64,000 nt of DNA from Puccinia triticina (Eukaryota; Basidiomycota; Pucciniomycetes; Pucciniales; Pucciniaceae). Shown in pieces: positions 25,637 to 51,803 of this stretch. The position numbers and the translations under genes were made by a program. The stretch's first letter is position 1. Each line of letters begins with the position of its first letter. Where the stretch lies: contig NC_070562.1 of the NCBI RefSeq assembly GCF_026914185.1, positions 4,278,001 through 4,342,000 of the forward strand. The letters run 5' to 3'. The notes below the pieces were generated by a model. The model was not told the DNA's origin and made no database searches. It saw nothing but the letters and a program-made list of their open reading frames with translations.

Positions 25637-25688
25637 ACCGGAAGAGGTAAAAGCGGAGGGAAGGGTCTTGGCAAAGGAGGTGTCAAAT
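25637..25688 (+). pseudogene. H4 pseudogene, exon 1 remnant
   Basis: Reads TGRGKSGGKGLGKGGVK plus one base, ending at a GTCAGT donor. Normal H4 lacks the Ser and has Ala for Val. An ATG at 25626 is out of frame, so the start has been lost. Confidence 0.9.
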
Positions 25689-25718
25689 GTCAGTATCCCT
25701 TCCTTGCATTCATGACTG

Positions 25719-25862
25719 GAGGACTTCCTGTCAATCTGGGAACCCAGATTTTTCCAGATTTTGCAGGGAAATCTGGGCTCGATCTTCCCAAATCCTAGAT
25801 CTGCCTAGATTTCCCTGCAAAATCTGGGAAAATCTGGGTTTCCAGATTGGCGGGAAGTCCTC
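25719..25862. mobile_element. 144-bp palindromic MITE in H4 intron 1
   Basis: Near-perfect inverted arms of about 60 bp start GAGGACTTCCTGTCAATCTG and end with the complement of GAGGACTTCCCGCCAATCTG. The element is almost wholly a hairpin. A clear target duplication was not found. Confidence 0.7.
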
Positions 25863-25888
25863 ACTATCCAGCTTCTGATATATAAATA

Positions 25889-27988
25889 GGGTCAGCCTAA
25901 ATGCACTCCAAACTTTTACTTCATGCACTCCACATTTTTGGCTTTAGGGGGCCAGCACTCCAAAAAAGTTGGAGTGCCTTGATTTTGTACTCCCAAAACA
26001 TGGAGTCCCCAGATGGGCACTCCATGTTTCTTGGAGTACACAACTGGGTAATCCAAAATTGACCAAAATAGGGGAGTGCAGCTAGATGCACTCCAAAAAA
26101 AATGGAGTGCAAGCCCAAGCACTCCACCTTTTCAGTGAAGGATTTTGGCTTTGCACTCCAGCTAGCAAATACCAAATGGAGTGCATTGGGGTGCACTCCA
26201 AGTCTCCTTTTCTTTGGAGTGCCCACAGCAATCACACCTCTCGATGAGGGGACTCACACAACCGGTCATCCAGAGGACTCATACCTCTCAATGACCGGCT
26301 CGGACCGGTCATCAGTCACACCTCTTGATGACCGGTGTGTACCGGTCAACGAGGGGAGGTGCTACTCTCGATGACCGGTCTTTACCGGTCATCGAAGGGA
26401 CTCCCACCTCTCGATGACCGGCGCGGACCGGTCATCAGTCACACCTCCCAATGACGGGCACAGTCCGGTCATCGAGAGGACTCACACCTCTCGATGACCG
26501 GTCACCACCGGTCATCGAGAGGACTCACACCTCTCGATAATTGGTCAGACCGGTCATCGAGGGGACTCACACCTCTCGATGACCGGTCATCTCCGGTCAT
26601 CGAGGTGAGTCACATCCCTCGATGACCGGTCAGACCGGTCATTGAGGGGAATAACACCTCCTCTGGATGACCGGTGTGTACCAGTCATCGAGGGGAGGCG
26701 CTACTCTCAATGACCGGTCGGTCTGACCGGTCATCGAGAGGAGATGTTACTCCCCTCGATGACCGGCACAGACCGGTCATCGAGAGATGTGACTCACCTC
26801 GATGACCGGTCATCACCGGTCATCAAGTGTTATTACCCTCGATGACCGGCCTGACCGGTCATCGAGTGGCGTGAGCGGTGTGAGCCCTCTCGATGACCGA
26901 CCGGTCATCGGGAGCATCAAGAGGTGTGAGTCCCTTCGATGACCGGTCTGTGCCGGTCACCGAGGGGAGCAGCACCTCCTCTCGATGACCGGTCAGACCG
27001 ACCGGTCATTGAGAGTAGCGCCTCCCCTCGATGACTGGTACACACCGGTCATCCAGAGGAGGTGTTATTCCCCTCGATGACCGGTCTGACCGGTCATCGA
27101 GGGATGTGACTCACCTTGATGACCGGTCTGACCGGTCATCGAGGGATGTGACTCACCTCGATGACCGGTCTGACCGGTCATCAAGGGATGTGACTCACCT
27201 CGATGACCGGTCATCACCGGTCATCGAGAGGTGTTATTACCCTTGATGACCGGTCTGACCGGTCATCGAGAGATGTGACTCACCTCGATGACCGGTGATG
27301 ACCGGTCATTGAGAGGAGGTGTTATTAGCCTCAATGACCGGTGTGACCGATTATCAAGGTGTGAGTCCCCTCGATGACCGGTCTGTGCCGGTCATCGGGA
27401 GGTGTGACTGGTCCGCGCCGGTCATCGAGAGGTGTGAGTCCCCTCGGTGACCGGCACAGACCGGTCATCGAGAGGAGATGTTACTCCCCTTGATGACTGG
27501 CACAGACCGGTCATCAAGAGGTGTGATTTCTGTGATTTCCCTCAATGACCGGCGGTCCGGTACAGACTGGTCATTGAGAGGAGATGTTAATCCGCTCAAT
27601 GCCGGTCTGTACGGGTCATGGATATCAGGAGGATCAAGTGGGGTTTGTTTGTACATAGCCCAGTTGAAGTTGTAGGCACTCCAGCTCTGGCTGGAGTGGC
27701 TGGAGTGCACAGTACTGCACTCCCCTTTTGAGGAGGAGAAACATCAGGAATGGAGTGCTGGGGGAATGCACTCCAATCCGATGGAGTGAGACTCATGGGC
27801 ACTCATTACATTTCCTGGCCACTGAAGTTCTTTGTGGTGCACTCCAAAGAGTCTTGAGTCCCCGGTTCTGCACTCCAATTGACTTGGAGTACTCTAGTCT
27901 GTACTCCAACAATCATTGGAGTGCACACTCCATACACTCACTTTTGGAGTGCTTTTGGGATTTTTTTGGAGTGCATTTAGGCTGACCC
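25889..27988. mobile_element. hAT-like non-autonomous element (2100 bp), CACTCCAA outer / GACCGGTC inner arrays, copy 1
   Basis: Ends GGGTCAGCCTAAATGCACTC and its exact complement. 8-bp duplication TATAAATA at 25881-25888 and 27989-27996. Outer zones 25889-26230 and 27670-27988 are arrays of CACTCCAA/TTGGAGTG palindromes. The inner zone is a long array of GACCGGTC palindromes. No gene. It lies in H4 intron 1. Sister copy: 47142-49693, with the same ends. Confidence 0.92.
26230..27620. repeat. Array of CTCGATGACCGGTC / GACCGGTCATCGAG palindromes
   Basis: Dozens of units, each an inverted pair around GACCGGTC or a short loop (GTCTGACC, GTCATCACC), separated by spacers such as GTGTGACTCA or GGTGTTATTAC. 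Variation in the arms is mainly C/T or G/A (CTCGATG to CTTGATG or CTCAATG), which preserves pairing in many units. Confidence 0.9.
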
Positions 27989-28035
27989 TATAAATATCTC
28001 TTTCCTGCGCGACATTGACACATCACCTCCTCCAG

Positions 28036-49693: not shown

Positions 49694-49701
49694 AAAAATT
49701 A

Positions 49702-50170
49702 AGGGTTATAAAGATTCCTTCGAAAAAGGAAAAAGGGTGGTAGCTTGTTAGAGAACGCGTGTATAGAGCGCAGGGGAGCTCAAGTTGAGCTGCTCCAAGA
49801 GTAGCGGCTTTAAGTTAGCTAAGTAGAGTGGCGCGTGATAGCGCTGGGGGGTTAGCTCGTAAGAGAGCATAGAGAGCGCGTGAGTGCTCTAGGTGGGTTG
49901 CGCTAAGTGTAGCGGCTTTTCGTGCGCGAAGGGGCGCGGGTTGTGCGCTATGTAGAGGGAGCACAAAGAGTAATTAAACTTAAGAGTTTTTAAGTTTAAA
50001 GTACGGTAGGGGTAGCCGCGCTCAGATAGCGGGTTTTGAGCTTTTAACAAAAGAGTTTAAGCTTTAAAGGTGGGTTTGGTGTGGTTTAATTCGTTGGGTA
50101 AACAAAAAAACTAAGTAAAGTATGGGTTTATGGAATAAAAAAGGGTAAAGTTCCCGGCCAGACCCCCAAT
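49702..50170 (-). other. Gypsy 5' leader next to the primer site
   Basis: Non-coding, with related blocks such as GAGAACGCGTGTATAGAGCGC and GAGAGCATAGAGAGCGCG at 49752 and 49863, suggesting an internal duplication of about 110 bp. Confidence 0.45.
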
Positions 50171-51273
50171 TGTCAGGCTCAGTGATGCCAAGAGCAAGGG
50201 TGCTCTTCTAGCTACGCCGGCGACAGAGCACGGTACAGTAGCGCGCGCAGCAAAAGCGCGGTAAAAAGTGTGAAATAGCTTAAAAAGCTATTTCTAATGA
50301 ACCAAAAAAATAGATTAACGGAGGGGCCAGGGGCGCCTGGGGTTTTTTAGTGCCCTCCGCAGTTCTTACAGGGCCTACGCACTGGATGCGCAGGGGTGTT
50401 TGTAGCCTGTGACGTCTGGGGCCCTTAACAAGGGGGTATTTGCGTGTCAAAAAGCTCCCAGGAGATGTAAAGGGATGGAAATACCGGTAGAAAGGAAAAA
50501 AACACAGACTTACTTGTAAAAGGAAGTCCGCAGCAAAAAAACACAAGCGATCCGATAAAAACCAAAGTCAAGGCAAAGGCAGGCTGGCGTACTGGTTGGT
50601 AGGACGAGTGGCGAGACTGGCTTAGGCGTCAAGCTGGTTATGAAAGGTATCTGAGGGGCCTTCCTTCGCCCAAAGGCCCTCGATTATATATTCAAGCTAC
50701 AACCCCTACAACTGGTGGTAGGGTTGTAGCTCTTATTGCAAATACTTCCTTGGTTTCTTGGCCAGAGGAAGTAGTGTTTCTTTCAAGGGTGACGGGAGTG
50801 AAGGGGGATTCTACTAGTCCCTTCGCTCCCGTTCACTTTATTTGTTATTTGATCCTTTTGCTATTCCTCGGCTTGAGGAATAGCGTGGTTCGTGTTCCAT
50901 CATCGGCCGGGGGAGGAGGAGTAGTATAATTCTGTTTCTCTCCTCCCCAACCAAAGTGCTTCTATTTCTCATAGAGACTACTCTCTGTTTAGTAGTCTCT
51001 TGAGAGTGTCTGACAACCCGTTCTCTTGGCTTGAGAACGGGTTTGAACTGATATTCTTTCTCCTGCTGATTCTCCGGCCGGAGCTTTATTTTCCTTACTC
51101 GTCTAAGGAATCTTTATTATTATGTGCGCAGCGCTCCGCGCCGCAGCTAGGTCTTTTTACAAGAAAGAAGTCTATTTTGTACGCGGCGCTCTGCGCCGCT
51201 ATTATTACATACAATTTTTGTAATACTACAATAGTTAGCCGAACTCTAAATTATAATAGTAGCCCGGCTGACA
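50171..51273 (-). repeat. 5' LTR of the gypsy element
   Basis: 1103 bp, TGTCAGGCTCAG to CCCGGCTGACA. Promoter and start site should lie here, but no element was assigned with confidence. Confidence 0.95.
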
Positions 51274-51671
51274 ATACCACAGTGTGTCTGGGGCAGTTGG
51301 CAAGGAGCTTGGTTGGGGTGGATCAGAAGCATGTTGCATGTTCAAGCCTCCCTTTTGTCCACCCAACTTGCCCAAACCTTGTTTTGAGCCCTCCAAAACC
51401 TGCGACGGCCCGTAACCATTCCAAATTGCACACGAAACCACTTCGGAAGTGCGTTGGGGACCCAAAATATAATTTGGATTGCCTTCCAGTAGGGTTCCTG
51501 GAATTTTCCAGTGAAAACGCCGACCGTCTGGCGACGGTCCCCCCTTGCAGGCAGACCAACTGAAATGATATCAGCTGGCAATCGAAATCATTTCGTTGAG
51601 CTTCGCCCGTGGTGTACCCTCGGTCTTGACATCCATCATTTCTTCCCTCATTCACAAATCTACAACCATAG

Positions 51672-51803
51672 ATCTTCCTTGAGAACGTAATTTGAGACTT
51701 GGTCACCTACACCGAGCATGCCAAGCGCAAGACTGTCACCTCCTTGGATGTCGTCTACGCTCTTAAGCACCAAGGCCGTACCCTCTACAGCTTCGGAGCT
51801 TGA
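51672..51803 (+). pseudogene. H4 pseudogene, exon 3
   Basis: After a CAACCATAG acceptor it reads IFLENVI, stop, DLVTYTEHAKRKTVTSLDVV then YALKHQGRTLYSFGA and stop. Normal H4 has Arg at the stop, Arg for His and Gly for Ser. All three are explained by C-to-T or G-to-A at CpG or GpG. Confidence 0.97.

What the first reader, a model, noticed from the sequence alone, without database searches (positions are those of the whole stretch)
25637..51803. One histone H4 gene spread over 26 kb by at least five nested transposons
The H4 coding pieces at 25637-25688, 28036-28071, 35096-35192 and 51672-51803 join in order, strand and codon phase. Removing each element at its own target duplication leaves two introns of about 95 and 94 nt. 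H4 is about the most conserved eukaryotic protein, so the identity is not in doubt. The case gives a rare, fully legible record of how a core gene copy is destroyed: a TA insertion in the exon, a MITE and a hAT-like element in intron 1, and a TA element with a hAT-like and a gypsy element inside it in intron 2.
Basis: partly seen in the sequence, partly recalled or inferred. Interest (0 to 1): 0.92.

Follow-up and report, generated by a model that had tools for sequence, protein, structure and literature searches.

The report
Histone H4 pseudogene holding eight transposons
In the wheat leaf rust fungus, a spare, decaying copy of the histone H4 gene has been stretched over 26 kb by eight transposons; it is an unusually readable but ordinary pseudogene, since six intact H4 genes remain elsewhere.

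Summary
Confirmed: four H4 pieces lie in order, strand and codon phase at 25638-51803. The inserts are eight elements (four in the gene, four nested in those), each with terminal repeats and a target duplication. The window is from Puccinia triticina Pt15 haplotype A, a gapless assembly (length, contig number and N50 match exactly).

The genome holds a natural control: a sister copy on contig C16, in a segmental duplication with C5, that lacks all eight elements. The pieces match it in order at 90-96%. Six other H4 genes look intact and encode one identical protein over the 101 codons compared.

Differences between window copy and sister fall evenly on codon positions (9/6/10), unlike intact H4 pairs (40/0/604), so the pair diverged without visible H4 selection. 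The sister has non-H4 residues without these insertions. Next to the window copy no promoter or start was found. Transposons more likely piled into a dispensable copy than killed a needed gene, but the insertions into the gene itself cannot be dated.

A third dead H4 copy (C14) sits inside a transposon of the same TA family as the exon insertion here: apparent gene capture, the most interesting by-product. Overall: new member of a known kind.

The parts
25638..25688 (+). H4 exon 1 remnant (begins at CCGG of codons 2-3; no H4 start codon)
   Evidence: 94% to C16 sister; GRGKSGGKGLGKGGVK
25177..25632 (.). Mosaic of unrelated repeat fragments where the promoter should be
   Evidence: Partial matches to three different repeats
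25689..28035 (+). Intron 1, 2347 nt; 91 nt outside the inserts
   Evidence: Donor GTCAGT, acceptor CAG as in the sister
25718..25862 (.). Element A, 145-nt palindromic MITE, target duplication ACT
   Evidence: 39 other full-length places at 96-99% among 40 scored of 370 candidates; absent from sister
25889..27988 (.). Element B, 2100 nt, ends GGGTCAGCC, 8-bp duplication TATAAATA; no ORF of 150 aa or more
28036..28071 (+). H4 exon 2, first part
   Evidence: 96% to sister
28072..35095 (-). Element C, 7024 nt TIR element at the Gly-Ile codon boundary of exon 2, duplication TA; DDE_3 and weak HTH transposase pieces on -, 396-aa ORF on +
32429..34061 (.). Element H, 1633-nt foldback nested in C, 8-bp duplication TATATTAA; lies between the HTH and DDE parts
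35096..35192 (+). H4 exon 2, second part; TGA (Arg codon) and a surplus in-frame TAA codon
   Evidence: 90% to sister
35193..51671 (+). Intron 2, 16479 nt; 94 nt outside the inserts
35232..51614 (.). Element D, 16383 nt with its contents; ends CACCACGGG, duplication TA; no transposase recognised
   Evidence: 35451-35700 matches a high-copy repeat
36209..39435 (.). Element G, 3227 nt nested in D, ends GGGGCAGGC, 8-bp duplication TATATAAA
39460..51273 (-). Element F, Ty3/gypsy retrotransposon nested in D, LTRs 39460-40540 and 50171-51273, duplication ATACC
   Evidence: RT, RNase H, integrase; LTRs differ at 38 of 1081 aligned sites
47142..49693 (.). Element E, 2552 nt, B family, nested in F, 8-bp duplication AAAAATTA
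51672..51803 (+). H4 exon 3 with in-frame TGA (Arg codon), normal end stop
   Evidence: 92% to sister over 51615-52013
52017..54339 (+). Downstream flank shared with C16 (duplication, partly inverted)
22622..23788 (+). Upstream flank shared with C16 (not tested for copies elsewhere)

Best explanation
This is a duplicated, dispensable H4 copy that escaped H4-level selection and collected transposons. Steps: (1) an H4 copy acquired a S-to-L change; (2) it was copied between C5 and C16 in a segmental duplication; (3) both copies drifted, with much CpG decay, including two Arg codons that are TGA here and CAA in the sister; (4) the window copy took four primary insertions (A and B in intron 1, C in exon 2, D in intron 2) and four nested ones (H in C; G and F in D; E in F), and its promoter and start were lost; (5) the sister took one recent Ty3 element at codons 2-3. 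Shown: the pieces, a sister without the eight elements, the target duplications, the nesting, the lack of codon-position bias, six intact genes. Inferred: that loss of constraint came before the insertions in the window copy, and that nothing is made from it now.
For: Four collinear hits to the sister far above controls. Eight exact target duplications (the TA and 3-nt ones are weak singly). Flanks shared with C16. Six intact genes with one identical protein over 101 codons. Window-versus-sister differences 9/6/10 by codon position against 40/0/604 summed over 15 intact pairs. 12 of 101 codons non-H4 in the window copy, 5 of 101 in the sister, one shared. Differences outside CpG context: window copy and sister 118 of 3214, gypsy F LTRs 14 of 1081, sister's LTRs 0 of 758 (from the counts), so F and the sister's element are younger than the duplication.
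Against: A, B, C and D cannot be dated, so C could have been the first lesion in the window copy soon after the duplication. The sister keeps an open frame over its H4 exons and may have worked until recently as a divergent H4. Three of its four own non-H4 changes are CpG-type; its LTRs differ at 5 of 48 CG places, so roughly one such change in the exons could be younger than its insertion. Only one non-H4 change is surely older than the duplication.
Confidence: 0.77

Rival explanations
1. The TA element C entering exon 2 was the killing event of a working extra H4 gene; point decay and the other insertions followed.
For: C lies in coding sequence and is absent from the sister. The sister's exons have no stop, and most of its changes are CpG-type and may be fairly young.
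Against: The sister lacks C but shows four non-H4 residues of its own, one a transversion, plus the shared S-to-L. No codon-position bias over the whole interval.
Confidence: 0.17
2. The pieces are unrelated H4 fragments brought together by misassembly or by independent insertions.
For: Long repeat-rich joins; no reads were available here.
Against: Collinear match to one sister segment of about 690 nt, including a 22-nt island between two elements, and eight target duplications; genome identical in length, contig count and N50 to a gapless HiFi assembly with mean read length 14.6 kb.
Confidence: 0.02
3. Still a gene: very long introns are spliced out and the product is an unusual H4-like protein.
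For: Splice sites look intact in both introns.
Against: Exon 2 is split by a TA element; three in-frame stops; no H4 start found.
Confidence: 0.01

Closest known systems
Nested transposon insertions in repeat-rich rust genomes
   [quoted passage not shown])
   Different: Here the host is a recognisable H4 copy with a sister lacking the inserts, so each insertion can be read exactly
Duplicated histone pseudogenes
   Same: Decayed paralogue beside intact family members (general knowledge)
   Different: Retains both introns, so it is a DNA duplicate and not a processed copy
Pack-TYPE (gene-capturing TIR) transposons of plants, incl. Pack-Mariner (PMC8903248, passages seen)
   Same: The C14 H4 remnant lies between TIRs with a TA duplication
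   Different: That paper treats plants; its main text has no 'fungi' or 'fungal'. The captured piece here is an H4 gene
TA-duplication DNA transposons of rusts (PHISTA, PMC12730594, abstract and passages seen)
   Same: TA duplications, extra ORF beside the transposase
   Different: Element C has a DDE_3 (Tc1/IS630-type) domain; no TET/JBP domain in those ORFs of C that were scanned

Membership tests
Histone H4 gene copy (pseudogene) | Collinear similarity to H4 with family intron positions | tested here: met
Histone H4 gene copy (pseudogene) | Disabling lesions absent from functional members | tested here: met
   TGA, TAA, TGA, exon split, no start found; 6 of 6 intact genes lack such stops and splits
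Histone H4 gene copy (pseudogene) | No product made | not testable with these tools
   no RNA or protein data held
Tc1/mariner-IS630 transposon (element C) | TA target duplication and inverted ends | tested here: met
Tc1/mariner-IS630 transposon (element C) | DDE_3-type transposase | tested here: met
   PF13358 E = 2.4e-16 at 32068-32346, partial (59 residues); HTH models only below their cut-offs
Tc1/mariner-IS630 transposon (element C) | Complete catalytic triad | not tested
   transposase pieces were scanned apart and not joined
hAT (elements B, E, G, H) | 8-bp target duplication with inverted ends | tested here: met
   4 of 4 exact 8-bp duplications
hAT (elements B, E, G, H) | hAT transposase | not tested
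   no ORF lying inside these elements was scanned; assignment rests on duplication length alone
Ty3/gypsy (element F) | LTR pair, RT then RNase H then integrase | tested here: met
   RVT_1, RT_RNaseH, Integrase_H2C2 above cut-off, rve just below; LTRs
Tc1/mariner-like (element D) | TA duplication with inverted ends | tested here: met
   ends only about 15 nt
Tc1/mariner-like (element D) | Transposase in the element or family | not tested
   ORFs of 70 aa or more were listed for 35200-39460 but not scanned against families
Pack-TYPE transposon (C14 element, outside window) | Host coding fragment between TIRs with target duplication | tested here: met
   TA|CAGCACTTTT...AAAAGTGCTG|TA around C14:3798197-3800976; H4 at 3799456-3800185
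Pack-TYPE transposon (C14 element, outside window) | Moved together after capture (more than one copy) | tested here: inconclusive
   no second copy with H4 listed, but only 40 of 1495 candidates were scored and the list is filled by the inserted repeat

The most novel reading that the evidence does not exclude
Element C belongs to a gene-capturing (Pack-TYPE) TA-transposon family in a rust fungus, and its double tie to H4 (one member inside the window copy's exon 2, another carrying a captured H4 copy on C14) reflects preferential contact with histone loci, for example through open replication-time chromatin, and not chance.
Probability: 0.08. Interest if true: 0.6.

Novelty: new member of a known kind. 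Interest (0 to 1): 0.3.

Why it matters
It is a clean teaching case: the near-invariance of H4 tells which changes are decay, the sister gives the empty site for the four primary insertions, and nesting gives part of the order. It suggests that transposons marked, more than caused, the loss of this copy. The three dead H4 copies found in this genome are each tied to transposons, by three routes (piled in, one retrotransposon at the start, captured): a small set for asking how rusts lose duplicated housekeeping genes.

Tried and rejected
Misassembly: rejected on collinearity, duplications and the assembly's identity. Processed pseudogene: rejected, introns kept. Alleles instead of paralogues: rejected, C5 and C16 are different chromosomes of one haplotype. 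H4 carried to the window inside a mobile element: the shared segment continues into a downstream flank whose matches are on C16, apart from H4 exons themselves (7 of 7 candidates scored), so segmental duplication fits better.

Shared ancestral retrotransposon insertion at the H4 start: the window copy breaks at the same CCGG where the sister has its Ty3 element, and both show CCACA before it. But the sister's LTRs differ at 0 of 758 sites outside CpG context while the copies differ at 24 of 675 in the gene pieces, so a shared insertion would need later LTR homogenisation. The window's 1.4-kb 5' flank shows no similarity to that element, and its last 20 nt have no other exact copy (one exact place, itself; four at 3 mismatches; control 8). 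Independent insertion at one of the 37 CG sites of the region (9 upstream, 28 in the gene), then deletion, is possible. Left unexplained.

Led nowhere: 'histone H4 pseudogene' (0 papers); (5 papers, listing only, unrelated by title); nested transposons in rusts (listing only); 'histone H4 gene' with Puccinia (one draft-genome paper, listing only); 'Pack-TYPE' with fungi (three papers, listing only). One search, meant to find the lost promoter elsewhere, was swamped by a repeat (40 of 189 candidates scored) and decides nothing. PMC10977897 was seen in passages and gave only isolate names and assembly sizes.
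Full report
Where it is. The window is G000:C5:4278001-4342000. G000 has 122,823,596 bases in 18 contigs, and C8 is 7,485,535 bases. These are the total, contig number and N50 of Puccinia triticina Pt15 haplotype A (PMC9927501, section 5 read), a gapless HiFi assembly. A 396-aa ORF in the window has three hits, all P. triticina.

The observation. Each piece was translated on its own and compared with other loci separately. An H4 search of the genome gave 21 matches at E up to 10. 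Twenty resolve into nine H4-like loci; the last (36%, E 1.35) was dropped as chance. Six loci have a start, two introns and no lesion, and over the 101 codons compared they encode one identical protein. Three are decayed: the window copy (W), a sister on C16:1008474-1009163 (d), and C14:3799456-3800185 (h).

W matches d in four collinear stretches (25633-25717, 27995-28071, 35095-35223, 51615-52013; 94, 96, 90, 92%), with a fifth 22-nt island between elements A and B. In 100 resampled controls the best score was 33.7 bits against 123-573 for the four stretches and 36.5 for the island. The d copy carries none of W's eight elements, so it is the empty site for all four primary insertions. W and d also share flanks: 22622-23788 with C16:994007-995131, and 52017-54339 with C16:1013656-1017175, the latter partly inverted. 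For 51660-53600 the other matches are on C16, apart from H4 exons of other copies; the upstream flank was not tested for copies elsewhere. This is a segmental duplication between two chromosomes of one haplotype.

The eight elements. Intron 1: A 25718-25862 (duplication ACT) and B 25889-27988 (TATAAATA). Exon 2: C 28072-35095 (TA), with H 32429-34061 inside it (TATATTAA). Intron 2: D 35232-51614 (TA), with G 36209-39435 (TATATAAA) and the gypsy F 39460-51273 (ATACC) inside it, and E 47142-49693 (AAAAATTA) inside F. E is of the B family. C holds a DDE_3 stretch (E 2.4e-16) and a weak helix-turn-helix, with H between them. F holds RT, RNase H and integrase. D's stretch 35451-35700 matches 39 other places at 96-100% among 40 scored of 335 candidates, so a ninth element inside D is likely, but I did not bound it.

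What decayed first. Between W and d, 25 of 303 coding sites differ: 9, 6 and 10 at codon positions 1, 2 and 3 (W's surplus codon and the two codons cut by intron 1 or by C are left out). Over the 15 pairs of intact genes the sums are 40, 0 and 604; against the closest intact pair (2 and 26) the contrast is significant (Fisher p = 6e-5). So the two copies diverged with no sign of H4 selection. W has non-H4 residues or stops at 12 of 101 codons plus a surplus TAA codon; d has 5 of 101; S-to-L is shared. Two Arg codons are TGA in W and CAA in d, what CpG decay on either strand would give. CpG-context transitions make up 19 of 43 differences over the gene pieces, 12 of 69 and 3 of 40 in the flanks, 24 of 38 between F's LTRs, and 5 of 5 between d's LTRs. 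Leaving those out, W-d divergence is 118 of 3214, F 14 of 1081, d's element 0 of 758. F therefore entered after the duplication, and d's own element is very young.

Did d lose H4 identity before its own insertion? Probably, at least in part. Its four own non-H4 changes are one transversion and three CpG-type changes; its LTRs differ at 5 of 48 CG places, and the exon pieces keep 20 CG, so I would expect about one CpG change in the exons since the insertion. The simplest reading is decay first in W too, but A, B, C and D cannot be dated, so this step is inference.

The start. In d the sequence up to ATGTCCGG, with a TATA-like motif (recalled motif), lies at C16:999841-1000147. A Ty3-type element (758-nt LTRs, 99.3% identical; ORFs of 721 and 1380 aa with protease, RT, RNase H and integrase domains) follows, and H4 resumes at C16:1008474. 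W begins at the same CCGG, preceded by CCACA as in d's LTR end, but the rest of its upstream flank is a mosaic of other repeats, and d's 5' stretch has no match in 114 kb of C5. I cannot explain why both break at the same base. Independent insertion at one preferred CG site, followed by deletion in W, is possible: of nine copies of that element family read by eye, all nine have CG within a 4-base duplication on at least one side (eight with both sides read: four exact, four with one difference).

The captured copy. h is similar to the intact C1 gene from 4 nt before the ATG to about 290 nt past the stop, lacks 55 nt at the start of exon 2, and has an in-frame TGA. It lies between inverted ends of family C (C14:3798197-3800976) with TA on both sides; a repeat of about 940 nt, found at 39 other places (two of them partial) among 40 scored of 1495 candidates, interrupts the left end. 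This looks like gene capture of the Pack-TYPE kind described in plants (PMC8903248, passages seen). The link between family C and H4 in two places is suggestive, but was noticed only because H4 was searched for, and other family members could not be fetched.

Verdict. The biology is a redundant histone copy decaying in a genome that is 64% repeats. It is new as a case, not as a kind. Interest 0.3.

Noticed in passing
L035 (C14:3796500-3803000), element C14:3798197-3800976: A third dead H4 copy sits between the inverted ends of a family C transposon with TA duplications: apparent capture of the C1 H4 gene.
   Followed up: partly
C16:1000148-1008473 (L040) and L051-L066: The Ty3-type family that hit the sister copy makes 4-bp duplications that contain CG on at least one side in all nine copies read, a possible CG-directed target preference.
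   Followed up: partly
25633-25641: The window copy and its sister are both cut at the same CCGG next to the H4 start, each preceded by CCACA, although only the sister has a recognisable LTR there.
   Followed up: partly
26230-27630, 32883-33617, 47500-49350: Elements B, H and E share dense palindromic repeats of the GATGACCGGTC type although their ends differ (B/E versus H); a similar stretch seems to lie near 22188-22727.
   Followed up: no
28297-29484 (+): 396-aa ORF in element C with no Pfam match and only three relatives, all P. triticina hypothetical proteins, among 7999 scored candidates.
   Followed up: partly
35169-35171: A surplus in-frame TAA codon in exon 2 of the window copy, absent from sister and intact genes; possibly an old excision footprint.
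   Followed up: no
1929-2435 (+): ATP-grasp domain as in succinate-CoA ligase beta / ATP-citrate synthase, probably an exon of an ordinary host gene.
   Followed up: no
11880-12530: Long tandem array of a short repeat, open in several frames (seen in the ORF translations).
   Followed up: no
14579-18392 (-): Broken Copia-type retrotransposon (RVT_2 at 15131-16495).
   Followed up: no
62427-63248 (-): Pif1-type helicase 2B domain, possibly part of a Helitron.
   Followed up: no
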